Shown here: positions 30,531-43,070 of the stretch, one piece after another | Position numbering within the stretch: the stretch's first letter is position 1 | How the letters are laid out: the number at the start of each line of letters is the position of its first letter | Source: Streptomyces sp. | Lineage (GTDB): Bacteria > Actinomycetota > Actinomycetes > Streptomycetales > Streptomycetaceae | Length of the DNA stretch: 43,485 nucleotides | Reading direction: 5' to 3' | NCBI RefSeq assembly: GCF_031178505.1 | Contig: NZ_JAPSIW010000005.1 | Location: 1-43,485, forward strand | Made by a program: the position numbers and the translations under genes | The notes under the pieces: model-generated | What the model was told of the DNA's origin: nothing | Databases searched by the model: none | The model's input: the letters and a program-made list of their open reading frames with translations, nothing else

Positions 30531-30681
30531 CGGGCCCCTTCAGCAAGAGCCGCGCAGCGCGGCGACACAGGGCTCGCCCATCTCGCGCCGGTGTCAGTTC
30601 TCACCAACATTCTCCGGCTCTGCGATCGACAAGCGCTGCCCAGACTCGGGTTCTGGCTCGCCTTCCGTGACGTGGTCACGA

Positions 30682-31098
30682 TTACTGACCAGTGGGTTCT
30701 TCGAGTGCCTGGAAGATCCGTTGCACTTCCTGATGCCACTGGTCGGCGTCGGTACTGTCCACCCACCCCGTCGCCATTTCTGATCCGGCCTGACGTACCC
30801 GGTCCAGTGCGAGCCTGGCCGACGCGCGGAGTGCCGCCGGTAGTTTGGGAAGCGGTTCCCTCGGGTCGTCCTTTGGATCCATCGCGATGGGGTTGTCCGG
30901 GATGGTGCTGGCGACGAGGGCACCAGCAGCAACGGCCTCGGTGCCGTCTCCGCCACCGACGCGTGCTCCTGAGCTGGTGACTCGTTGGAATGCCTGCTCA
31001 AGCACGTCGATGACCAGTTGGTGGGTGAGTTCCTCAAGTTCATCGACGAAGTCTGCGGCGAGGTCGCTGTCGACCGGGCCGGTTCCCCACGTTCCCAT
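30682..31098 (-). CDS. DUF4259 domain protein
   Basis: A 138-aa protein starting MGTWGTGPVDSDLAADFVDE, the hallmark of DUF4259 (MGTWGxGxFDNDxAxDFxxxL). It continues TEAVAAGALVASTIPDNP and LPKLPAALRASARLALDRVR. ATG 31098 is preceded by CCAGGAG at six bases. The family is small, cytoplasmic and often next to toxin or immunity genes; function is not established. Its promoter region is interrupted ~50 bp upstream by the ISL3 remnant, so expression may be altered. Confidence 0.85.
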   Translation of the reverse strand: MGTWGTGPVDSDLAADFVDELEELTHQLVIDVLEQAFQRVTSSGARVGGGDGTEAVAAGALVASTIPDNPIAMDPKDDPREPLPKLPAALRASARLALDRVRQAGSEMATGWVDSTDADQWHQEVQRIFQALEEPTGQ

Positions 31099-31174
31099 GC
31101 ATGGCTCCTGGTATGGCTGTCTCGGATGGAGGCGGGATTCCAGGCGCCTCTGACATAGGTCATGGGGCGAGGAG

Positions 31175-31905
31175 GACTCGCTTGCAGTGCGAAGCCGGCA
31201 CGTCCGAACATCTGGCGCTTGAGCATCTTGATCCGGTTGACGTGTCCTTCGACGACTCCGGAGTTCCAGGGCAAGGTGAGTCCGGCGATGACGGCGTCGC
31301 GGTCTCGGTCGATGCCTTCCGCGAGAGTGTGGAGGCTGGGCAGGTCGTCCTGGCGGACGGCGTCGAGCCATTGCGGGAGTCGTTCGCCCTGGCACTCGGT
31401 GAGCATCCGGGCGAAGGACCGGACGTGATCGATCAGGGCGTCGAGTTCGGGGCAGTCGGCCAGGACGGCCTTGAGCTGGAGCTGTCCGATCTCGGTGAGG
31501 GATTCCGGGCGGCTGAGGATCCACCCGGTCACCACGCCGGGTGCCGGCGGCTGTGCGGTGACCGGAGAGGTGCGCTTCTTCCTGATGTAGGCGCTGACAA
31601 TGCCGTAACTGCCCCGGTAGCCGAGCGGAGTGATCTCCTCCCACAGTTTCCAGGCGTTGGCGCAGCCCTCGTCCCAGCGCTCGTCCAGGTAGGGCTTGTA
31701 CTCGTCCAGGGCGGAGGTCCGGTTGTGCTGCCACTGCCCGCGGAAGAGGTCTTCCGGCCTGGCCGTGTCGGCGAGGCTCTTGACGGTGCGATGGGTGATG
31801 TGGAGCCGACGCCCGATGGAGCGGTGGCTGTGGCCGGCTTCCAGCAGGGCGTGGACGGTGGCGTGTCCGGCCCGGATGCGTTTGGCGAACGGGCCTTGAC
31901 CCCTG
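31175..31905 (-). pseudogene. ISL3-family transposase, N-terminally truncated
   Basis: The minus strand carries RIRAGHATVHALLEAGHSHR, RLHITHRTVKSLADTARPED, KPYLDERWDEGCANAWKLWE, TPLGYRGSYGIVSAYIRKKR and LTLPWNSGVVEGHVNRIKML, then KRQMFGRAGFAL. This is the middle HTH and C-terminal part of an ISL3 transposase (typically SNGVTEGRVNxIKxLKRQMYGRAxFxLLRxR). The N-terminal zinc-binding and first DDE part is replaced by an IS3 element at ~31891-31905. The ending is also diverged. Confidence 0.8.
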
Positions 31906-31961
31906 ACCTTGGACACACGAGACACTGGAGCCTGGGTTTTGAGAACGGACATCTCGTGGTC

Positions 31962-32261
31962 ATGAAGAACTGTCCGCCGCAGTTCCAGGCGGACGCGGTC
32001 GCGCTGTACCAGTCGCGGCCGGAGGCGACGATCCGGCAGGTTGCCGCCGATCTGGGAATCAACCCCGAGACCTTGCGCAACTGGGTCCGGGCGGCTGGCG
32101 TGAGCCGGCTGCGGGGACGCCGGGCGGAGGTGCCCACCGAGCCGCCGACGCCGTTGGAGGCGGAGAACGCCGCTCTGCGCATGAAGGTCCGTGAGCTGGA
32201 GGAAGAACGCGAGATCCTGCGCAAGGCGGCCGAGTATCTCGCCGGGGAGACACGCTGGTGA
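31962..32261 (+). CDS. IS3 family transposase OrfA
   Basis: A 99-aa DNA-binding protein of an IS3 element. It has MKNCPPQFQADAVALYQSRP, then the HTH EATIRQVAADLGINPETLRN WVRAAG. A leucine-zipper-like helix follows: LEAENAALRMKVRELEEERE ILRKAAEYLAGETRW. It ends with TGA overlapping the GTG of orfB (GTGA), which lies in the -1 frame. In active elements a -1 ribosomal frameshift makes the OrfAB transposase. OrfA itself looks intact. Confidence 0.88.
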   Translation: MKNCPPQFQADAVALYQSRPEATIRQVAADLGINPETLRNWVRAAGVSRLRGRRAEVPTEPPTPLEAENAALRMKVRELEEEREILRKAAEYLAGETRW

Positions 32262-33157
32262 ACCGCTTCCAGTTCGTCGCCGACCACCAGCGCCGCTACG
32301 GCGTGAAGCGGCTGTGCGCCGTCCTGGGCATCGCTCGTTCCAGCTTCTACTGCTGGCGTCGGACCGCGGAGGACCGGGCCGCCCGCCAGGCCGCCGACAT
32401 CCGTCTCGCCACCCGGATACGGGCCGTGCACCACGAATCGAGTGGCACCTACGGCGTCCCCAGGATCACCGCCGAACTCCGAGAGAGGGGCGAGCGCATC
32501 AACCACAAGCGGATCGTCCGGGTGATGCGGAGCATCGGCCTGGCAAGGCGTGCGGCTGCGGCGCAGGCACCGCACCACGACCGCGGACCCGGCCGCAGCG
32601 AAGGCCCCGGACCTGATCGGCCGCGCTTCACCGCAAGTGAGCCGAACACGAAGTACGTAGGCGATATCGCCTATCTCCCGCTGAAGCGCGGCAGGTTCCT
32701 CTACCTGGCCACCGTGATCGACCTCGCCTCGCGCCGTCTGACCGACTGGGCGATCGCGGATCACATGCGCACCGATCTCGTCACCGACGCCCTGGCCGCC
32801 GCCGAACGCACCCGCGGCAGCCTCACCGGGGCGGTCATGCACACCGACCACGGGGCCCAGTACACCAGCCGGGCCTTCGCCGCTGCCTGACGTCAGGTCG
32901 GCATCCGCCAGTCGATGAGCGCGATCGGCTCCAGTGCGGACAACGCACTCGCCGAGTCCTTCAACGCGACCTTCACACGCGAGACGCTCCAGGGCCGCAA
33001 GCACTGGTCCAGCGAGCGCGATGCCCCCCTCGAAACCTTCGGCTGGCTGCACCGCTACAACACCTGACGCCGTCACTCCTGCCTCGGACAACGCAGTCCT
33101 ATCGCCCACGAAGCAGCGCCCCGGACAACACCAACTACGCTGACCCCAGCCGCATAA
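32258..33157 (+). pseudogene. IS3 family transposase OrfB with two in-frame TGA codons
   Basis: Starts VNRFQFVADHQRRYGVKRLC. It has DDE residues in NTKYVGDIAYLPL, MHTDHGAQYTSRAF and DNALAESFNATFTRETLQGR. A TGA at 32888-32890 replaces the Cys normally following SRAFAAA, and a second TGA at 33065-33067 replaces an Arg in RYNTxRRHS. Reading past both gives a normal C-terminus ending at TAA 33155-33157. Between ~32545 and ~32630 the usual RLRRRHRTTTADPAAAKAPD appears in another frame, so two compensating indels also lie there. The element cannot make an active transposase by itself. Confidence 0.8.
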
Positions 33158-33789: not shown

Positions 33790-34314
33790 TCAGGGAGTTC
33801 GTCCCTCTGGGACGTGGGGGGAGCGCGGTGTCACCGCGTCCTGTTCCGTGAGGTGCCTGTCCATGGTGGTGTTCAGGTCGGCCATGAACGCTTCGACCTG
33901 TTCCAGGAACCGGGGCGGGTAGTGCGACATCGCGCCGTCGAGGCGGTGGGCGAGCGGGCCGAAGAACTCGTCCGCCCGTTCCTGGATGTGCCCGCCGCTG
34001 CGCAGTGTGACGATGCGCCGGTCGGAGTGCTCGCGGGCTCGCGTGATGTGCCCGGCCGCTTCGAGGCGGTTCAGCAGCGCGGTGGTGGCGCCCGTGGACA
34101 GGGAGATCCGCTCGCTCAGCCGCGCCGGCGACAGCGGGGCACCGCGCTCCTCGGCGGCGGCGATCTCCAGGACCGCGGTCGCGTCCGTGGAGTGCAGGCC
34201 CAGCCAGGCGGCGAAGCGCCGACTGAGCTCGGCGTAGTGGCCGCCGTAGATCCTCAGCGACTCCATCAGCCGCTCCCGCTGCTCCGCGACACCGTCGCGC
34301 ACTGCTTCCTCCAC
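33790..34314 (-). CDS. MarR family transcriptional regulator
   Basis: A ~174-aa winged-helix repressor. It has ELSRRFAAWLGLHSTDATAV, the recognition region LSERISLSTGATTALLNRLE and the wing HITRAREHSDRRIVTLRSGG. The C-terminal dimer helix contains FLEQVEAFMADLNTTMDRHL. GTG 34314 gives the usual MarR length; GTG 34338 or TTG 34368 are longer in-frame alternatives (AGGAGAG lies between them). It is divergent from an MFS efflux gene, with a near-perfect palindrome over the efflux promoter. It most likely represses the exporter and is released by its drug substrate. Confidence 0.9.
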   Translation of the reverse strand: MEEAVRDGVAEQRERLMESLRIYGGHYAELSRRFAAWLGLHSTDATAVLEIAAAEERGAPLSPARLSERISLSTGATTALLNRLEAAGHITRAREHSDRRIVTLRSGGHIQERADEFFGPLAHRLDGAMSHYPPRFLEQVEAFMADLNTTMDRHLTEQDAVTPRSPHVPEGRTP

Positions 34315-34361
34315 GCCTTCGCCCTTCTCTCCTGTCACGCGGTCCGCGCTGCCACTCCGCT

Positions 34362-34390
34362 TTGACAACCTACCGCCACCACTTTACCTT
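34362..34390 (+). promoter_or_regulatory. Promoter of the MFS efflux gene
   Basis: TTGACA at 34362-34367, a 17-base spacer and TACCTT at 34385-34390 fit the major (HrdB-type) sigma consensus in Streptomyces (TTGACN, TANNNT). A transcript would start near 34397. The -10 lies inside the left arm of the palindrome, consistent with repression by the divergent MarR protein. Confidence 0.65.
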
Positions 34391-34419
34391 CATGGTGGAA
34401 TTGCTTCACCATGGAGGTA
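34385..34419. promoter_or_regulatory. Probable MarR operator palindrome
   Basis: TACCTTCATGGTG (34385-34397), nine bases, CACCATGGAGGTA (34407-34419); 12 of 13 positions pair. It covers the -10, the presumed start point and the GGAGGT ribosome site of the efflux gene. A bound repressor would block transcription, and an RNA hairpin could also mask the ribosome site. Confidence 0.7.
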
Positions 34420-34425
34420 TCTGGA

Positions 34426-35928
34426 ATGCGTGATCCGTCCCCCACCCCCGAGGAGACAACCGAGCCCTACCGGTGGCGGTGGCTGATCCTGACGGTGATG
34501 ATCGTCGCGGAGATCATGGATCTCCTGGACGCCTCGATCGTCAACGTCGCCGGACCGGACCTGGAGAAATCCCTCGGTGCCGACTCGGTCGGACTGCAGT
34601 GGGTGATCGGCGGCTACGCCCTCACCCTGGGCGCCGGGCTCGTCCTCGGTGGCCGCCTCGGCGACCGCTACGGCCGGCGCCGGATGTTCCTGATCGGACT
34701 CGCCACCTTCACCGCGGCCTCCCTGCTGTGCGCGATCGCGCCGAACATCGAGTCGCTGATCGCCTTCCGCCTGCTGCAGGGCACTGCCGGAGCGATGCTG
34801 CTGCCCCAGGGCCTGGGCCTGCTGCGGGAGAACTTCTCCGGCCCCGAGCTCACCAAGGTCTTCGCGATCTTCGGCCCCGTCCTCGGCCTGGGCGGCATCA
34901 TCGGCCCGGTCTTGGGCGGTTTCCTCATCGAGGGCGACTTCTTCGGTCTGGGCTGGCGGTCGGTGTTCCTGGTCAACCTGCCCATCGGCATCGCGGCGCT
35001 GGTCGTCGCCGCGGAGTTCGTGCCCAGGAAGGCGGGCGACCGCACGGTTCGGGTGGACATGGCCGGCGCCGCTCTGATCGTGGCGTCCTGCGCCCTGCTG
35101 GTGCTGCCGCTCAATCAGGGGCAGGAAGAGGGCTGGCCACTGTGGACATGGCTGTCCATGGCCGCCTCGGTGATCGGTCTCGCTCTCTTCGCCCTCCAGC
35201 AGCGCCGCACGGCCGCCGCAGGCCGCGAGCCGCTGGTGACCCCGGGCCTGCTGCGCAAGCCCGCCTTCACCGTCGGCCTCGGCGGCATCACCCTGTTCTT
35301 CGGCGGGCTCATCGGCACCCAGCTCGTGCTGACCCTGTTCCTCCAGATCGGCCAGCACTTCACCGCCGGTGACGCGGGGCTGGGCAATCTGCCCCTCGCC
35401 GTGGGAACCGCGATCGGCGGCGCCATCAGCGGCGCGTTCCTCGCCGACAAGATAGGCCGCAAGGTGCTCCAGATCGGACCACTGGTCCAGCTGGCCGGCG
35501 CGGCCGTGCTGTGGTTCGAGCTCCACGGCCTCAACGAAGCCTCGTTCTCGATCTGGGACATCGTCCCCGGCACGACGGTGGCGGGCATCGGCGCCGGCAT
35601 GGTGATCGCCGCCCTGTTCAGCTTCATCCTGGCCGCGGTCGACGACGACGAGATCGGATCCGCCTCCGGCGTCCTGTCGGCGGTCCAGGCGGTCGGCGGC
35701 TCCATCGGCGTCGCGGTCTTCGGCTCGGTGTTCTTCGCCCAGGCCAAGACCGGTGACTTCAGCGGCGGCTTCCACCACGCGCTGATCGTCCAGGCGTGCC
35801 TGCTGGGGGCCTTCTTCGCAATCACCTTCCTGCTGCCCAAGAAGAGCCGCCCCGAAGAAGAGCAGCACGGCGTCACCCCCGAGACGACCGCCGACGGCTC
35901 CGGCGCCAAGCAGCACCTCGCCATCTGA
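34426..35928 (+). CDS. MFS transporter, DHA2 (EmrB/QacA) drug efflux family
   Basis: A 500-aa polytopic membrane protein with about 14 hydrophobic segments. Motif A is GGRLGDRYGRRRMFLIG, the DHA2 D1 motif is MDLLDASIVNVAGPDL, and motif C-like GPVLGLGGIIGPVLGG is in TM5. It would export cationic or hydrophobic drugs using the proton gradient. ATG 34426 lies seven bases after GGAGGT; the in-frame ATG at 34411 sits inside the operator before the ribosome site and is rejected. It is divergent from its probable repressor. The downstream 30 bp then enter IS5 debris, so the gene is monocistronic. Confidence 0.93.
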   Translation: MRDPSPTPEETTEPYRWRWLILTVMIVAEIMDLLDASIVNVAGPDLEKSLGADSVGLQWVIGGYALTLGAGLVLGGRLGDRYGRRRMFLIGLATFTAASLLCAIAPNIESLIAFRLLQGTAGAMLLPQGLGLLRENFSGPELTKVFAIFGPVLGLGGIIGPVLGGFLIEGDFFGLGWRSVFLVNLPIGIAALVVAAEFVPRKAGDRTVRVDMAGAALIVASCALLVLPLNQGQEEGWPLWTWLSMAASVIGLALFALQQRRTAAAGREPLVTPGLLRKPAFTVGLGGITLFFGGLIGTQLVLTLFLQIGQHFTAGDAGLGNLPLAVGTAIGGAISGAFLADKIGRKVLQIGPLVQLAGAAVLWFELHGLNEASFSIWDIVPGTTVAGIGAGMVIAALFSFILAAVDDDEIGSASGVLSAVQAVGGSIGVAVFGSVFFAQAKTGDFSGGFHHALIVQACLLGAFFAITFLLPKKSRPEEEQHGVTPETTADGSGAKQHLAI

Positions 35929-35961
35929 GCCCCGGCCGGGGACGCGCACGACAAGGGAGCC

Positions 35962-36316
35962 CGGGGCCAACGTCCTACGCAACCGCGAAAGCCTGGGCCG
36001 ACACCGGCTACCGCACCAGAGCCATCGAACACGGCGCCCGCCTCGGCATCGACGTGGAAGTCGTCCAACGCGAACCCGGAACCAAAGGCTTCAAGGTGAT
36101 CCCGCGACGCTGGGTGGTCGAGCGGACCTTCGGCTGGCTCATGCGCCATCGCCGCCTCGCCCGTGACTACGAAACCCACCCTCATCGATCCGAAGCCATG
36201 ATCCACGTCGCCATGATCGACCTCATAAGCAGACGCCTCACCCGAGAATCCACCCCGAACTGGCGCGACACCTGGACCTCGAACCAAACAACCCTGCCGG
36301 GACAAAACGCTCTTTT
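35962..36316 (+). pseudogene. IS5-family transposase, C-terminal fragment
   Basis: Reads AKAWADTGYRTRAIEHGARL, GIDVEVVQREPGTKGFKVIP, RRWVVERTFGWLMRHRRLAR, DYETHPHRSEAMIHVAMIDL. This is the final DDE Glu region (WVVERTFGWL) of IS5-type transposases. The first half is absent. The right end of the element (CCGGGACAAAACGCTCTTTT, ~36298-36317) abuts and truncates the regulator on the minus strand. Confidence 0.8.
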
Positions 36317-36317
36317 A

Positions 36318-37170
36318 GGGCGCGGGAGCGGCGTTCGATGCTGGGCAGCTCCTTGAGCGAGATGGAACGGGCGGCGGCGAGCGCTGCCAGGGGGGGCCGG
36401 CGTAGTTCTCGGCGGAGATGCGGCGGAGCTGCACGGTGAGCGGGCTGAAACCTCGCCGTGGTCGCGCAACAGCGTTCCCCTCCGAGGTCCTTGGCGATGC
36501 CCGCGGCCTCGTCGGTCAGCTGCCGCATCCCATCCTTGTCGCCCCGCCGCGCCACGGTGTAGGTGGCGGATTGGATGAGCAGTCCACGCGCGGCGGCGCC
36601 AGCTCGCCCAGTGTCGCGCAGGTCGGGGTGGTCGGCGGCGGACAGTGCGATCGACAGGGCCTCGTCACGCCATCCCGCTCCTCGTGCGAGGACGGCGAGT
36701 TGGCGGGCGGACTCGGCGACCGCGAGGATGTCGCCGCCGGCCTTGGCCAACTGGCGGGCAGGGTCGACGGCCGTCCAGCCGAGCTGCTGCTCGTCCATCT
36801 TGATGAGCATGCGGGTGGCCAGCAGGTAGCTCTTGGCCAGGAGCTGGCAGTTTTGGGTTTCGCCGCGGCTGCCGGAAAGCGCGTGTCCGGAGCGGATTAG
36901 CCGGGGCAGCCGGACGGCGAGGGAGGCATAACGGCAGGCGTCGAGGTCGGCGAGCGTATGGGCGAAGTCCGCATCGGCGTCACGGCCGATGACGGGTCGG
37001 GGGCGTTGCCGAGGCCGAGCATCGCATCCCGGATGCGGGCGACGAGCAGCTCGCCGGGAAGAGCCTCCTCCGCCGCCATGGCGGTCTTGTTTCCCAGGAG
37101 TGATGAGCCAGCGGCGGCCGTCGGCAGGCACGACGGCCCCCGCGGTGTGCGCCATGGCGATGCTGTTCAT
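36318..37170 (-). pseudogene. XRE-associated TPR-type regulator, frameshifted and truncated
   Basis: The minus strand from ATG 37170 reads MNSIAMAHTAGAVVPADGRR. The homology moves frame near 37075 (MAAEEALPGELLVARIRDAM) and again near 36985 to FAHTLADLDACRYASLAVRL, LLATRMLIKMDEQQLGWTAV, ESARQLAVLARGAGWRDEAL, RGLLIQSATYTVARRGDKDG. A further shift occurs near 36475, ending SIERRSRAL at the IS5 junction. This is the C-terminal TPR half typical of Streptomyces XRE-family regulators. No HTH is visible at the N-terminus, and at least three frameshifts disable it. Confidence 0.6.
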
Positions 37171-37187
37171 CTGACGTCGCACACGCC

Positions 37188-37220
37188 GAGAGGCCGGGCC
37201 CGCCAGGGACCCGGCCTCTC
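37188..37220 (-). terminator. Terminator after the RHS/immunity operon
   Basis: GAGAGGCCGGG (37188-37198), an 11-base loop, CCCGGCCTCTC (37210-37220). The perfect stem lies 15 bases after the stop of the minus-strand gene ending at 37235, so it fits as the operon terminator. Confidence 0.75.
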
Positions 37221-37234
37221 AGAAGGTGCCACTC

Positions 37235-37543
37235 CTACCAGTAGGTGCGGGTGACCGCGTCAGGCAGCCGCCCCTGCCGCTCCTTCTCCATGAAGAGCAC
37301 CGCCGCGATCTTCAGGAAAGCGGTCCGGACTCCCGGGTCCGGGTCGGGGTTCTGCACATTCCCGACCCTCTTGTCGAGCAGCGTGTCACCGAGAGGATCT
37401 CCCGCCGCCGTACAAGGACGAGCGATCACCCCTTCCGGGTCGATCAGGATGTTCCCGGTGATCCCCTCCACGGTCGTCCACGCGTAGACGCCCGCTCCGG
37501 TGTCCAGGGAAGCGATCATTTTGCAGCTGAAGGATGCTGTCAT
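37235..37543 (-). CDS. Putative immunity protein for the upstream RHS toxin
   Basis: A 102-aa soluble protein: MTASFSCKMIASLDTGAGVY, AWTTVEGITGNILIDPEGVI, LLDKRVGNVQNPDPDPGVRT, AFLKIAAVLFMEKERQGRLP. Its ATG shares one base with the RHS stop (TGATG), so it is translated by re-initiation after the RHS protein. Small soluble proteins encoded directly after an RHS tail are normally immunity proteins that bind the toxin domain. I do not recognise a named family. The terminator at 37188 ends the operon. Coding quality is good throughout. Confidence 0.75.
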   Translation of the reverse strand: MTASFSCKMIASLDTGAGVYAWTTVEGITGNILIDPEGVIARPCTAAGDPLGDTLLDKRVGNVQNPDPDPGVRTAFLKIAAVLFMEKERQGRLPDAVTRTYW

Positions 37544-40500
37544 CACCGGAACCCTATCCCGTCGGCCGCGGGCGCGTTCTCGTCCCAGACATGGCCCGCG
37601 TCCAGGGTCGCCTTGTGAGCCCGGCGGTAGTTCTGATCGCCGTGCTCCCGCATCCAGCTGGACTCGTACAACTCGTGGGCCAGCAGGTCGAAGTCGCTGG
37701 GGTGCGGGTTTCCGTCCTGGAGCCGTTCCCAGGCCCTGGCGATATAGGGGTTGGAGTGGAACCGCTGCACGCCGTCGTCGAGTTGGTGCGTCTCGATGAA
37801 CAGGTGCCGGTAGATCTGGTTGATGTCGGCGGCAGAGTAGCCGTGCGACGCGGCGGACTGGGCTACCCGGTCGAGCCGGGCGTCGGCGCGGATCGCGTCG
37901 TAGGCGTGGTCCGCCCACTCCATCCAGAAGTCTGTCTCGCTGTGGGGCCTGCGGAAGGACGTGCCGCCGGACTGGAGATCCGGCTCCGTGGCGACGGCGG
38001 TCCGCCGCCACCCCGTGAGGCCGCCGACACCGGAGAGGACGAGCTGCTGGACGAGTTCGTCGGCGGTGTCGGAGTACAGGTCGGCGAGGGCGTCGCAGCC
38101 CTGCTGGCGGAGCATGTTCTCGGCGCGGTAGAGCCGGTACGCGGGACGGACGGGCAGGTACTTGTCGACGAACCCGCCCGCGCCGCCGTTCTCGCCGGTG
38201 GCGGCGTCTTTCATGTCCTTGAGGAACACGAACGGCGACTTGGCGACGTCGACGAAGGCGTCCTTGAAGATGCCCGCGGCCTCGCCGACGCTGTCGACCC
38301 GGTCGTTGTCGGGGTCGTCCGGGGACAGACCGCTGGGGTCGGTGAGGGCGCTCGGCACGTTGTCGGCGTAGGCGTACGCGGAGACGTAGGGCGCCGTCAG
38401 ATCCCGGGCGGCCGGGTCGGGTCGGGTGAAGCGCCCTGTGGTGGTGTCGTACTGGCGGGCGTGCAGGTCGAGGTTGCCGGTGGTGGGTTCGTGCCGGGCA
38501 CCGGTGTACCCCGGGGTGCTCGCGGGCGCGCCGCCGGTGGCGGTGGCGAGGACACGGGTGCCGAACGAGTCATAGGACCAGCGCTGGTGCAGGGTGCCGG
38601 TGCCGGACGTGACGTCGACCGGGGAGCCCTGGGTGTCGTGGTGGTAGAAGAAGAGCGCCCCGGTGCCGTTCTTGGTGGCGATGGGCTGGCCTATGGGGTC
38701 GTAGCGGTAGGACTGCTGGATCTTCCAGTCGCTGTCGTACTCCGTGGCCAGGAGCGGCAGCGGCGCGTTCGGGTCCCACTGGGTGCGGGAGGTGACCACG
38801 GCGCCCTTGCGGGTGGTGACCTGGTTGCCGCTCGCGTCGTGGTCGTAGCTGTACGCGGTGCCGCCGACGGTAGCGGCGGAGATCTGTCCGGCCAGGTCGT
38901 AGGTGTAGGTGTCGGCGCCCGCCTTGGTGCGGTTGCCCTCGGCGTCGTGCTCGTAGCCGGTGGTCGTGGTGCCGGTGGTGGTGGAGGTGAGCTGGTCGGC
39001 GTCGTCGTAGGCGTAGCCGGTGGAGGCCCCGCCGAGGGTGGAGGTCAGCCGGTTGCCGACCTTGTCGTAGGTGTAGGTGGTGGCGCGGGCGGCGGGGCAT
39101 CCGGCCGCCCAGGGCTGGGGCGCGCAGCCGGAGGCGAGCCGTCCGGCCGCGTCGTAGGTGAGGTCGTAGCCGCCGGTGCCGATACCGGCCCGGGTGACGT
39201 CGACGCGCTCGGGCAGGCCCGCGTCGGACAGCGTCAGGGAGGTCTTGGTGACGGTGGTGTCCGACTTGGCGGAGGTGACGGCGGTCAGGCGTCCGGCCCG
39301 GTCGTAGCTGCGGCTCTCGGTCTGGGTGTTCGGCAGCGCCGACTTGGCCAGCCGGTTCGCCGGGTCCCAGGTGTACGTGGTGGTCTTGCCGTCGGCGGCC
39401 AGGGTCTCGGTGCGGCCGTCGTCGTCGTACGTGTACGTGAGGGTGTTGCCGTCGGAGTACTTGCGGGTGAGCAGCTGCCCGGCGTCGTCGTAGGTGTAGC
39501 CGAAGCCGCGGGTCTTGGTGAGACGGCCGACGGGGTCGTAGCCGAAGTCCTCGGACATCTTGGCGTTCGTGCGGGCGGTGAGCTGCCCGGCGTCGTCGTA
39601 ACCGAAGGTCGCGTCGGGGGTGCCGTCCGAGTAGTCGGTCTTGGTGAGCAGGCCGCGCGGGTCGTAGCTGTAGGCGGTGGTGCCGCGCGGGGTGGTCCTC
39701 TCGGCGACGTGCCCCTCCGCGTCGTAGGCGTAGGACGTCTTCCGCTTCAGCGGGTCGGTGACCGAGGTGCGGCGGTGCGCCGCGTCGTAGCCGTAGGCGG
39801 TGACGTGACCGTTCGCGTCGGTGCGCTCGGTGAGGTTGCCGAGCTTGTCGTAGCCGTAGCCGGTGATCGCGCCGCCGGGGGCGGTGACCTTGGTGAGCTG
39901 GTCCAGGTCGTCGTAGCCGTAGGCGGTGGTGCGGCCGTCGGCATCCTTGCGCTCGACGACCTTGTTGAGGGCGTCGTACGCGGTGGTGGTGACGCCGCCG
40001 AGAGGGTCGGTGACCTTGGTGGGGTTGCCCGCCTCGTCGTAACCGTAGGTGGTCGTGTACTGGTCGGGGTCGGCGCCGGTGGCGTTGCCGCGCGGGTCGA
40101 CCGATGTGGCGCGGCGGCCGTCGCCGTCGTAGGTCCAGGTCGACTTGTGACCGAGCGGCGAGGTGCGGCCGGTCAGGTTGCCGTCGAGGTCGTAGGCGTA
40201 GGTCGTGGTCCTGCGGAGTTGGTCGGTGCTGCTGCTGAGGCGGTTGTTCTTGTCGTAGACGGCGGTGGTCGACTTGCCCGCGGCGTCCGTTGTCTTGACG
40301 ACGTTGTTGTTGGCGTCGTAGCCGTAGCCGGTGGTGTGGCCCAGCGGGTCGGTGACCACGGACGGCCGGTTGATCGCGTCGTACGTCGTCTTCGTCTTCG
40401 CGCCGGTGGGGCCGGTGGTCAGCGTCAGGTTGCCGGCCGCGTCGTATTCGTATGTCGTGGTGTAGGCGGCCGGGTCGGCGCCGGAGACGTTGCCGCGCGC

Positions 40501-41427
40501 CGAGACACTGGTGAGAAGACGGCCCGCCTTGTCGTACGTGTAGGTGGTCTTCCCGCCCTCGGCGTCGGTGCGCGACGCGAGGCGTCCGCTGGGGTCGTAG
40601 GCGCGGGTGAGGCTCTTGCCCGCCTGGTCGGTGGTGCGGGTCAGGTTCCCGGCGTCGTCGTGGCCGAGGGTGGCGGTGTCGCCCGCCGGGTTGCGCACCG
40701 ACGAGAGCTGCTCGGCGCCGTTGTACTCGTAGGCCGTCGTGCGGCCGAGCGCGTCCTTGGCCGTGCTGAGCAGGCCGCGGCCGTCGTAGGTGTACGTCGT
40801 GGTGTACGCGTCCGGGTCGGCACCGGAGACGTTGCCGCGCGGGTCGGTCCTGGTCAGGACGCGGCCCGCCTTGTCGTGCGTGAACGTCGTCTTCTCGCCG
40901 AGGGGCGTGGTGACCGACGTCCGGTTGCCCGCGGAGTCGTAGCCGTACGTGGTGACCTTGCCGCGCGGGCTGGTCACCGTCTCCAGCTGACCGAACCCGG
41001 TGTACTTGTAGAGGGTCTTGCCGCCCGTCGGGTCCGTCGCCGACGTAAGCCGGTTCGCGGTGTATCCGTAGATCGTCTTGTGGCCGCGGCCGTCGGTGTG
41101 GCTGGTGAGGTTGCCTGCGGTGTCGTAGCCCCAGCTCTCCTTGTAGCCGAGCGCGGCCGGGGAGGTGCGGGTCTCCATCCGGCCCGCGCCGTCGTACGTC
41201 ATCTCGGTGGTGTTGCCGCGCTGGTCGGTGATGGCGCTGGGGCGCAGCTTGCGGTCGTAGTCGTAGGTGATGCTCTTGCCGTACGGGTCGACCGTCTTCA
41301 TCAGGACGTTCGCCGCGTACACGTCGGTCCACACACCGCCGTCGGGCGCGGTGGTGTGGGACTCGCCGCTCTTGCCGTCCCAGGTGAACGTGGTGGTCTT
41401 GCCGCGCTGGTCGGTCTGCGACTTCAC
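37543..41427 (-). CDS. RHS/YD-repeat protein, C-terminal part with toxin tail (frameshifted from its N-terminus)
   Basis: About 1,294 residues, with in-frame coding continuing back to ~41508. Dozens of YD repeats (GYDSAGNRTSVTTPLGEKTT, TYDKAGRLLTSVSARGNVSG) build the RHS cocoon. The RHS-associated core follows: ARQYDTTTGRFTRPDPAARD, SAYAYADNVPSALTDPSGLS. The variable tail (~270 residues) ends in INQIYRHLFIETHQLDDG, FDLLAHELYESSWMREHGDQ and NYRRAHKATLDAGHVWDENA. Its conserved His/Glu pairs (HLFIETH, AHELYE, RRAHKAT) suggest a metal-dependent toxin, unnamed by me. The signal peptide is on the upstream part. One frameshift near 41508 separates the two, so the GTG at 41427 is probably not a natural start. 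The likely immunity gene follows with a TGATG overlap. Confidence 0.85.
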   Translation of the reverse strand: MKSQTDQRGKTTTFTWDGKSGESHTTAPDGGVWTDVYAANVLMKTVDPYGKSITYDYDRKLRPSAITDQRGNTTEMTYDGAGRMETRTSPAALGYKESWGYDTAGNLTSHTDGRGHKTIYGYTANRLTSATDPTGGKTLYKYTGFGQLETVTSPRGKVTTYGYDSAGNRTSVTTPLGEKTTFTHDKAGRVLTRTDPRGNVSGADPDAYTTTYTYDGRGLLSTAKDALGRTTAYEYNGAEQLSSVRNPAGDTATLGHDDAGNLTRTTDQAGKSLTRAYDPSGRLASRTDAEGGKTTYTYDKAGRLLTSVSARGNVSGADPAAYTTTYEYDAAGNLTLTTGPTGAKTKTTYDAINRPSVVTDPLGHTTGYGYDANNNVVKTTDAAGKSTTAVYDKNNRLSSSTDQLRRTTTYAYDLDGNLTGRTSPLGHKSTWTYDGDGRRATSVDPRGNATGADPDQYTTTYGYDEAGNPTKVTDPLGGVTTTAYDALNKVVERKDADGRTTAYGYDDLDQLTKVTAPGGAITGYGYDKLGNLTERTDANGHVTAYGYDAAHRRTSVTDPLKRKTSYAYDAEGHVAERTTPRGTTAYSYDPRGLLTKTDYSDGTPDATFGYDDAGQLTARTNAKMSEDFGYDPVGRLTKTRGFGYTYDDAGQLLTRKYSDGNTLTYTYDDDGRTETLAADGKTTTYTWDPANRLAKSALPNTQTESRSYDRAGRLTAVTSAKSDTTVTKTSLTLSDAGLPERVDVTRAGIGTGGYDLTYDAAGRLASGCAPQPWAAGCPAARATTYTYDKVGNRLTSTLGGASTGYAYDDADQLTSTTTGTTTTGYEHDAEGNRTKAGADTYTYDLAGQISAATVGGTAYSYDHDASGNQVTTRKGAVVTSRTQWDPNAPLPLLATEYDSDWKIQQSYRYDPIGQPIATKNGTGALFFYHHDTQGSPVDVTSGTGTLHQRWSYDSFGTRVLATATGGAPASTPGYTGARHEPTTGNLDLHARQYDTTTGRFTRPDPAARDLTAPYVSAYAYADNVPSALTDPSGLSPDDPDNDRVDSVGEAAGIFKDAFVDVAKSPFVFLKDMKDAATGENGGAGGFVDKYLPVRPAYRLYRAENMLRQQGCDALADLYSDTADELVQQLVLSGVGGLTGWRRTAVATEPDLQSGGTSFRRPHSETDFWMEWADHAYDAIRADARLDRVAQSAASHGYSAADINQIYRHLFIETHQLDDGVQRFHSNPYIARAWERLQDGNPHPSDFDLLAHELYESSWMREHGDQNYRRAHKATLDAGHVWDENAPAADGIGFR

Positions 41428-41458
41428 GCGGCCCGCGCTGTCGTAGACGTTCTTGACC

Positions 41459-42916
41459 TCACCGCCCGCGGGGTCGGTGTAGGATTTCAGGCGCTTGTCC
41501 GTGTCGTAGGTACGCGTACGAGGACCTGCGGCCCGCCGGGTCGGTGACCGAGGTCAGCAAGCCGCCGGTGTAGCCGTACGAGACCGACGTGCCGTCAGGC
41601 AGCCTCACCTCGGACAGCAGGCCGCCGGTGCCGGGCGTGAAGGTGGTGGTGCGGCCGCCCGCGTCCTTGACGGAGGCGAGCTTGCCCGAGGCGTAGGTCA
41701 GGCTGAGGCCCTTGCCCGCCGCGCCGACAACGGAGGTCAGCAGACCGCCGCTGTCGAAGGTGCGCGCGGTGTGGTCGGGCGTGGTGACCGTGTATGTGCC
41801 GGCGCCCTCGACCAGCTTGGCCGCCGAGCCCGCGGGGGCGGTGTACGTGCCGTCGCTCGCCTGCGTGAACACGAACGACGCCCCGTCCCCCGTCCGGTAC
41901 GTCGCCTTGCCCGTCGCGAGGGTGAGCCGCGCGTCGAAGGGTGTCGTCCAGCCGCGCCCGAGGAGGCCGGTGGCGGTCACGTCGGAGCGGTAGGTGCGCT
42001 CCAGCGTCAGCGGTACGCCGGGCCCCGTCAGGGAGGCGTCGGTGAGCTGCTCGTAGAACACGCCGGTCGCCGTGTTGACGGGGTCTGCGCGGTGGGCCTG
42101 GGCGTAGCAGGTGCAGATGCCCGCGGCCGCGCCCGGGATGCCGGGCGTGTAGAACGCCTCCACCAGCGGCGACTTGGTGCCGCCCGGGCTTGAGGAGCCG
42201 TCGGAGCTGTTGAGGAAGACCCAGGCGTAGTACTTCTTGCCGTCCTGAAGGATGCCGCCCAGCTGGCTGCCCGCCCACCAGAAGCACTGGTCGGTCGGGT
42301 AGGAGTTGCTCGACCACCAGTCGTAGCACCAGGCGCCGGAGTCGGGGGTGTCCCCCTGGGGGTTGTCCGTGGCCTTCTTGATCTCCTTCTGGACGATGGG
42401 CTTGCCCGCCTCGTCCATCACGTAGAGCCACAGGCCGCTGTACGTCGATCCCCGCTTCGGCAGCTTCACCTGCCCGCCGATCGACAGCATGCCGGGGTAG
42501 GCGCTCGCCCAGGCCGACACCGAGGTCGGGTTCCCGGGCGCCGCCACGAGCCGCCGGGCGGGCGCCTCGGCGGCGGGGCCGCGATCGATGCCCTGTTTGC
42601 CGCGCACCGGTTCGGGGAGGCGGTGAGGTGTGCCACCCTTGGCCGTCCGCTCGGGGGCGTTCATGTAGGCCCGCATGGGCGACACTTGGTGCCGCTTCTT
42701 CGTGAGCTGAGCGCGGCGCTCGGCCAGTGTCATGGCCTTGGGCGGGTCGGGCAGGTCTTCCGCCGTACGCGGCTCGACCTGGGCGACGCCCGCCGCGGAC
42801 GCGGCGTCGGACCGGTCAGGGAACACCGCCCAGGAGGGGGCGGCGTTCGCCGTCGAGAGAAGGACGAAGGCCAGGAAGGCCAGGACGAGTCTTCGCGCTT
42901 GTGAGCGCATGGTCAT
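41459..42916 (-). CDS. RHS protein, N-terminal part with signal peptide and DUF6531 (frameshifted)
   Basis: About 485 residues from ATG 42916. The start is a Sec signal peptide (MTMRSQARRLVLAFLAFVLL, cleavage after ANAAPSWA). ATG 42910 is an alternative; an upstream TTG at 42964 would spoil the signal. An Ala/Pro linker and a secreted domain with paired Trp/Cys follow (AWCYDWWSSNSYPTDQCFWW). Then comes the DUF6531 segment DPVNTATGVFYEQLTDASLT and PLTLERTYRSDVTATGLLGR, which caps RHS cocoons, and the first YD repeats. Around 41506-41512 the frame is lost: TACGCGTAC is followed by CTACGAC, so the RHS reading SYAY..YDTDKRL continues in another frame. The intact protein would be about 1,800 aa. 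Confidence 0.85.
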   Translation of the reverse strand: MTMRSQARRLVLAFLAFVLLSTANAAPSWAVFPDRSDAASAAGVAQVEPRTAEDLPDPPKAMTLAERRAQLTKKRHQVSPMRAYMNAPERTAKGGTPHRLPEPVRGKQGIDRGPAAEAPARRLVAAPGNPTSVSAWASAYPGMLSIGGQVKLPKRGSTYSGLWLYVMDEAGKPIVQKEIKKATDNPQGDTPDSGAWCYDWWSSNSYPTDQCFWWAGSQLGGILQDGKKYYAWVFLNSSDGSSSPGGTKSPLVEAFYTPGIPGAAAGICTCYAQAHRADPVNTATGVFYEQLTDASLTGPGVPLTLERTYRSDVTATGLLGRGWTTPFDARLTLATGKATYRTGDGASFVFTQASDGTYTAPAGSAAKLVEGAGTYTVTTPDHTARTFDSGGLLTSVVGAAGKGLSLTYASGKLASVKDAGGRTTTFTPGTGGLLSEVRLPDGTSVSYGYTGGLLTSVTDPAGRRSSYAYLRHGQAPEILHRPRGR

Positions 42917-43070
42917 CACCTGTGAGGCAGCAGTGGACAGAGCCTCGGTGATGTTGGTCCGCAAACCGTTCGCACTAACGCGCGAGAACGGGTTCGGCCG
43001 GATGTCGACGGCGGGTCGGAGAGGGCGAAGGGGGAACGTTTCTGCTCGGGGAGCCGAGCTCCGGAGAGCC

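What the first reader, a model, noticed from the sequence alone, without database searches (positions are those of the whole stretch)
37235..37650. TGATG-coupled partner gene directly after an RHS toxin tail
The RHS stop and the next ATG share one base, and the 102-aa product plus a terminator close the operon. This is the classic place for a specific immunity protein, yet I recognise neither the partner nor the toxin family. It may be an undescribed effector/immunity pair.
Basis: partly seen in the sequence, partly recalled or inferred. Interest (0 to 1): 0.6.

Follow-up and report, generated by a model that had tools for sequence, protein, structure and literature searches.

The report
Unlisted antibacterial toxin tail with immunity partner
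The end of a large secreted Streptomyces protein looks like an interchangeable antibacterial toxin that travels with the small gene behind it, most likely its antidote; relatives of the toxin, each with a small gene behind it, sit on other delivery proteins and on phage head proteins, and no curated family describes either part.

Summary
In detail: on the minus strand the RHS gene's TGA shares one base with the ATG of a 102-aa gene (37543-37235). The last ~150 residues of the RHS protein form a helical domain with conserved H66, D103, H109-E110-x-x-E113 and H129. The window's tail and partner match no Pfam, NCBIfam, PHROGs or PADLOC family, and the tail model has no Foldseek match. In 31 of 31 loci fetched by the tail alone, a partner-profile match follows directly. 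Tail relatives sit on RHS, T7SS-type, hemagglutinin and phage minor-head proteins. The partner follows the tail, not the stem: 4 of 4 stem places with this tail have it; of 13 with other tips, one keeps a remnant. In two phage contigs tail plus partner are 94% identical over 715 bp on dissimilar carriers. In 295 genus genomes 16 of 17 close tail loci have the partner, yet 22 of 38 partner places lack the tail, as expected of immunity genes but also a weak point. Best reading: an RHS polymorphic toxin with its immunity protein, a new family of a known kind. Toxicity, neutralisation, chemistry and fold novelty are untested. The window's RHS gene has a frame break near 41,500, so this copy may be inactive.

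The parts
37235..37543 (-). Partner gene, 102 aa (P0001), predicted immunity protein: beta-rich with one long helix
   Evidence: partner-profile match directly behind the tail in 31 of 31 loci; AlphaFold2 pLDDT 85.6, pTM 0.74
37541..37545 (-). TGATG junction: RHS stop and partner start share one base
37543..38001 (-). Variable C-terminal tail of the RHS protein (P0004, 152 aa plus stop), predicted toxin domain
   Evidence: Relatives on RHS, T7SS-type, hemagglutinin and phage head proteins; AlphaFold2 pLDDT 88.4, pTM 0.80
37999..38370 (-). RHS stem (pre-toxin region ending GVGGLTGWRRT) shared with proteins that carry other tips
   Evidence: 19 places in 17 of 295 genomes: 4 carry this tail, 13 other tips, 2 no readable tip
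37543..41427 (-). RHS/YD-repeat ORF with RHS core, from its first GTG
   Evidence: 24 RHS_repeat stretches; TIGR03696 RHS core; translation
41459..42964 (-). N-terminal part of the same RHS gene in another frame, with a signal-peptide-like start (by eye); frame break near 41,500
37186..37222 (-). 16-bp GC hairpin after the partner; possible terminator without T-run

Best explanation
This is the business end of an RHS polymorphic toxin system. A signal peptide and YD-repeat shell export and carry a swappable C-terminal domain into neighbouring bacteria. That domain is a mostly helical enzyme without a curated family, whose conserved H66, D103, HExxE (109-113) and H129 suggest a hydrolytic, probably metal-assisted, active site. 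The 102-aa gene coupled to its 3' end makes the cognate immunity protein, which binds the tail and protects the producer and its kin. Shown by sequence: tail-partner linkage, partner tied to tail rather than stem, cassette exchange in phages, stem polymorphism, use of several carriers. Inferred: export, toxicity, neutralisation by binding, catalysis and substrate.
For: Partner-profile match directly behind the tail in 31 of 31 loci fetched by the tail. 16 of 17 close tail loci in the genus set have an adjacent partner; the exception, G168, is truncated. Stem places: 4 of 4 with this tail have the partner; of 13 with other tips none has the tail and 1 has a partner remnant. In phage contigs L142 and L144 tail plus partner are 94.4% identical over 715 bp with no DNA similarity upstream; without the tail the carriers show no significant protein similarity, best E 0.58. 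Carriers: RHS, T7SS_signal, WXG100_2, PT-TG, Fil_haemagg_2, Phage_Mu_F or minor head. Partner more divergent than tail in 351 of 351 pairs; distances correlate, r 0.845, 0 of 5000 permutations as high. Damaged tails with readable partners: L054, L055, L099, L113. Eight invariant residues in 20 diverse members, among them H66, H109, E110, E113.
Against: No activity data. 22 of 38 partner places lack an adjacent tail, and 11 of the 14 looked at show no toxin nearby. Tails are acidic (pI 4.6-5.6), unlike typical nuclease toxins (recalled). The window's RHS frame is broken. Homology of the short (77-aa) and Lachnospiraceae partners to P0001 is not shown: leave-cluster-out fails; the phage/Firmicutes partner profile gives probability 25. 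Correlated distances can come from shared descent.
Confidence: 0.85

Rival explanations
1. The tail is a toxin, but the partner is a chaperone, export adaptor or expression regulator of the tail rather than its neutraliser.
For: Small genes beside effectors can be adaptors (recalled). Partner-profile match behind the tail in 31 of 31 loci.
Against: An adaptor for delivery should follow the carrier; the partner is absent behind 12 of 13 other tips on the same stem, the 13th being a remnant, and goes with the tail onto dissimilar phage carriers. It persists without the tail and diverges faster than it. A tail-specific chaperone is not excluded.
Confidence: 0.08
2. The tail is a non-toxic or decayed structural cap of the RHS protein, and the pair is a remnant without antagonistic role.
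For: The RHS frame is broken in this window. Degenerate copies lacking the HE motif exist in large actinobacterial ORFs.
Against: The tail is open with its motif intact here and in the 29 aligned members. Relatives sit on several different delivery platforms, and tail plus partner are exchanged together.
Confidence: 0.05
3. The tail is a divergent member of an already catalogued toxin family (for example Ntox28 or Ntox15 of the 2012 survey) that the profiles miss.
For: The survey table lists helical families with H/E/D signatures, e.g. Ntox28 [DN]HxxE.
Against: No polymorphic-toxin family among the Pfam models listed at E<=1 for 29 members; the HExxE spacing differs from the listed signatures (by eye). 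That those Ntox models are in this Pfam copy is recalled.
Confidence: 0.2

Closest known systems
RHS/WapA-type polymorphic toxin with cognate immunity (survey PMC3482391: abstract, section 29, two of seven parts of section 5, passages)
   Same: YD repeats, RHS core, variable C-terminal tip, small gene directly behind, tip domain shared among delivery systems
   Different: Tip and partner of the window match no model in Pfam, NCBIfam, PHROGs or PADLOC
MuF polymorphic toxins of temperate phages (PMC5576092: passages and section 7)
   Same: A related tail ends phage minor-head proteins, one with a Pfam Phage_Mu_F match, and a small gene follows
   Different: The window protein is an RHS protein; the paper leaves many C-terminal extensions unassigned, and its supplementary tables were not read
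Orphan immunity genes left after effector replacement (V. cholerae T6SS, PMC5361080: abstract and outline)
   Same: Old immunity gene retained downstream of a new effector, as the remnant at L110/L137
   Different: Streptomyces RHS locus, not T6SS
Ntox28 and other helical toxins of the 2012 survey
   Same: Helical, conserved H and acidic residues
   Different: Different motif spacing by eye; no Pfam toxin match

Membership tests
RHS polymorphic toxin system | YD/RHS repeats and RHS core before the tail | tested here: met
   RHS_repeat E 3.7e-134, 24 stretches; Rhs_assc_core 53.4 bits against cut-off 32.5
RHS polymorphic toxin system | Secretion signal on an uninterrupted gene | tested here: inconclusive
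   Signal-like N-terminus by eye in the window and four relatives, no predictor run; the window frame is broken
RHS polymorphic toxin system | Same stem carries different C-terminal tips | tested here: met
   Of 19 stem places 13 carry other tips, 4 this one, 2 no readable tip
RHS polymorphic toxin system | Specific small gene directly downstream of the tip | tested here: met
   31 of 31 loci; 4 of 4 stem places with this tail
RHS polymorphic toxin system | Tip domain shared with other delivery systems | tested here: met
   T7SS_signal, WXG100_2, PT-TG, Fil_haemagg_2 and Phage_Mu_F carriers of relatives
RHS polymorphic toxin system | Tip is toxic and partner neutralises it | not testable with these tools
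   Needs expression experiments
Known toxin domain families in Pfam/NCBIfam (Ntox, Tox-REase and so on) | Curated profile match of the tail | tested here: not met
   Pfam, 29 members: no toxin family listed, best E 0.0044 to HTH_28; NCBIfam, 13 members: best E 0.06. PHROGs and PADLOC: none for P0004, but phrog_2494 'minor head protein' reaches into the tail of two phage relatives
Known toxin folds (BECR, HNH, REase) | Same fold in solved structures | tested here: inconclusive
   No Foldseek match at E<=0.001; best VIA Z 2.9, rmsd 5.3, 81 aligned
Known immunity families | Curated profile match of the partner | tested here: not met
   29 partners scanned: Pfam best E 0.012, NCBIfam best E 0.037, one member each
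MuF toxin family | N-terminal MuF domain on the carrier | tested here: not met
   The window carrier matches RHS repeats, not MuF; MuF or minor-head matches only on phage relatives

The most novel reading that the evidence does not exclude
The tail founds an undescribed toxin superfamily with its own fold and an H...D...HExxE...H active site. It is used as an interchangeable warhead by RHS, T7SS-type, hemagglutinin and phage-head carriers across Actinomycetota, Bacillota and Pseudomonadota, together with coevolving partners. Its chemistry may be new among antibacterial toxins.
Probability: 0.45. Interest if true: 0.68.

Novelty: new member of a known kind. Interest (0 to 1): 0.52.

Why it matters
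A toxin-immunity family without a curated description, shared by bacterial competition proteins and phage heads, would let annotators name many 'hypothetical' tails and small genes. Its conserved HExxE site makes the mechanism directly testable. The phage contigs show a tail-plus-antidote unit moving between carrier genes with sharp boundaries.

Tried and rejected
Curated families: weak hits to AAA_lid_3, HTH_28, DUF5333 and engineered TPR proteins are short and inconsistent; treated as chance. Fold searches of tail (PDB, VIA second look, BFVD) and partner (best VIA Z 4.6) gave nothing usable; the VIA look tests only Foldseek's own list, so it does not show a new fold. The SM1 phage MuF toxin was read as a candidate relative; by eye its tail is a different domain. 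A nuclease was my first guess; the acidic tails weaken it. Literature searches showed no paper that I recognised as describing this domain. The library is open-access only, supplements were not read, and I opened six papers (abstracts or parts), so absence from print is not shown.

Counting notes. The 31 loci are all that one search returned, including damaged ones (L048, L054, L055, L059); one search looked only for one conserved peptide pattern, so they are not a full census. 26 of the 31 contributed to the partner profile, so 31 of 31 is partly by construction; the leave-cluster-out test (E below 1e-9) holds for the 19 loci with ~100-aa partners and fails for the seven tested loci with short or Lachnospiraceae partners. 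In some searches only the 12 or 16 best first-look candidates per genome were scored, so counts may be low. 'Close' tail loci (17) exclude six distant relatives (L081-L086) and count G030 and G181 once though each gave two rows. Adjacency of the 38 partner places was read by eye; three of the 22 without tail have E above 0.001. Tip types on the stem were sorted by eye. No intact tail with a broken partner was noticed, but this was not counted systematically. In one search the Rhizobium protein was translated in a wrong frame; it was scanned in the right frame. The carrier of L144 was not scanned for families.

Full report
Check of the observation. On the minus strand the RHS frame ends TTC CGG TGA at 37543; the following ATG uses the same A, and the 102-aa frame runs to 37235. 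A 16-bp GC hairpin follows at about 37222-37186 (z -5.35), without a T-run and unlisted by the terminator scan. Four relatives (L029-L032) are open in one frame of 1783-1788 codons and align to both ORFs at 79-89% identity. This may be a real mutation or an error in a draft of 1072 contigs; I leave it open.

The tail. Pfam and NCBIfam recognise the repeats and the RHS core but nothing convincing in the last 275 residues. The tail is found in 16 of 295 genus genomes with a single sequence, in 23 of 295 with a profile (six of these are distant relatives), in 3 of 396 genomes across the phylum, the window's own included, and at 31 loci of a species-level genome collection, mostly Streptomyces but also Kutzneria, Actinoplanes relatives, Micromonospora and a Lachnospiraceae MAG. 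It also appears on four plasmids: a disrupted copy in Streptomyces sp. KN37, Priestia, Rhizobium, and a copy split by a stop in Ligilactobacillus. A phage-derived query finds it in 17 phage records, 16 of Streptococcus and one of Staphylococcus phages. Profile comparison of the bacterial and phage tails gives E 5e-24 over 131 columns. Across 20 diverse members Y34, H66, F81, G97, H109, E110, E113 and Y125 are invariant, with H72, D103 and H129 among those nearly so. PHROGs has no model for P0004, but phrog_2494 (minor head protein) covers much of the tail of two phage relatives without calling it a toxin. The AlphaFold2 model is confident (pLDDT 88.4; residues 1-16 below 50) and mostly helical with one hairpin. 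Foldseek finds no solved or viral structure at E<=0.001. Whether the conserved residues meet in space was not measured.

The partner. In 31 of 31 loci fetched through the tail, a partner-profile match lies on the same strand directly behind it; elsewhere in those loci one weak reverse-strand hit was seen, E 0.004. With the locus's own cluster left out of the profile, the 19 loci with ~100-aa partners are still recovered at E below 1e-9, so these are one family. The seven tested loci with 77-aa or Lachnospiraceae partners are not recovered, so their homology is only suggested by similar layout; the phage/Firmicutes partner profile compares at probability 25. The 29 partners scanned match nothing convincing in Pfam or NCBIfam. 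The model is a beta sheet with one long helix, pLDDT 85.6.

One exchange unit. The window's stem region is found at 19 places in 17 of 295 genomes. Four carry this tail and all four have the partner. Thirteen end in other domains, at least six types by eye; none has the tail, and one (L137) keeps a partner remnant further downstream. Two have no readable tip. So the partner goes with the tail and not with the stem. Conversely, relatives of the tail sit on proteins with T7SS_signal, WXG100_2, RHS with or without T7SS_signal, PT-TG, hemagglutinin and, in phages, minor-head or Phage_Mu_F domains; of nine carriers scanned, two (L034, L082) gave no convincing carrier domain. In viral contigs L142 and L144 the stretch of tail plus partner is 94.4% identical over 715 bp and ends at the partner's stop, with no DNA similarity upstream. 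A protein alignment that includes the tail runs about 67 residues further upstream, but with the tail removed the carriers show no significant similarity, best E 0.58. The partner is more divergent than the tail in 351 of 351 pairs among 27 loci, and the two distance sets correlate (r 0.845, 0 of 5000 permutations as high); shared ancestry can produce part of that.

Asymmetry. In the genus set 16 of 17 close tail loci have an adjacent partner (the exception, G168, is truncated), but 22 of 38 partner places have no adjacent tail. I looked at 14 of those 22. One has a decayed tail upstream (L099, profile E 0.0019), one is the remnant behind another tip (L110/L137), one lies by eye among T7SS-type genes without the toxin (L093), and 11 show no recognised toxin upstream. 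Elsewhere L054, L055 and the KN37 plasmid (L113; partner 70.6% identical over all 102 residues) show damaged tails with readable partners. This is what retained immunity looks like; similar retention after effector replacement is described for V. cholerae (PMC5361080, abstract).

Mechanism. Most likely: secretion by signal peptide, carriage by the YD shell, delivery of the tail into a competitor, enzymatic damage, and neutralisation of the tail by the partner in the producer. Linkage, exchange and shared use by several carriers are shown by sequence; export and everything after it is inference from the polymorphic-toxin literature (PMC3482391, abstract, section 29 and parts of section 5; PMC5576092, passages and section 7). 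An HExxE motif with further His and Asp suggests a metal-assisted hydrolase; acidic tails (pI 4.6-5.6) make a nucleic-acid target less certain. I give about 0.85 to toxin plus immunity and about 0.4 to a metal-dependent hydrolase.

Membership and novelty. The locus meets the sequence features of an RHS polymorphic toxin that I could test, apart from an uninterrupted secreted gene in this window. The tail is not a member of any Pfam or NCBIfam toxin family by single-sequence scan. It is therefore filed as a new family within a known kind of system. Whether the fold is new, and whether the domain has been described outside the literature searched, remain open.

Noticed in passing
window 41340-41560: The RHS gene is split between two reading frames near 41,500, while four relatives are open throughout; real mutation or assembly error undecided.
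   Followed up: partly
L061, L062, L063 (genomes G343, G522): Two matches in one open frame of about 12,000 codons (G343), and one in another genome, are copies of the tail domain whose HE motif is lost.
   Followed up: partly
L081-L086: Distant relatives of the tail end Streptomyces open frames of about 820-1180 codons; L082, the one scanned, matches no Pfam domain; an HE..E motif is kept. Partners there were not examined.
   Followed up: no
L127-L137, L140, L141: The window-type RHS stem carries at least six other tip types by eye (some papain-like or nucleotidyltransferase-like), a ready catalogue of Streptomyces toxin tips.
   Followed up: partly
L142 and L144 (IMG/VR contigs): Tail plus partner, 94% identical over 715 bp, on two dissimilar carrier proteins with sharp boundaries.
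   Followed up: yes
P0004 residues 10-14 and equivalents in A2: A short QSGG/QTGG-like motif stands near the start of the tail in 21 of 29 aligned members, possibly the linker or cassette boundary.
   Followed up: no
L115 after 4363: The Rhizobium hemagglutinin with this tail is followed by an unannotated ORF of roughly 100 codons, a candidate immunity gene without clear similarity to P0001 by eye.
   Followed up: no
window 30594-33100 and 35796-36356: By eye, several transposase-like ORFs, some broken, lie near the RHS locus.
   Followed up: no
window 33790-35928: By eye, a MarR-like regulator (minus) and a 505-aa MFS transporter-like gene (plus) stand divergently beside the RHS locus.
   Followed up: no
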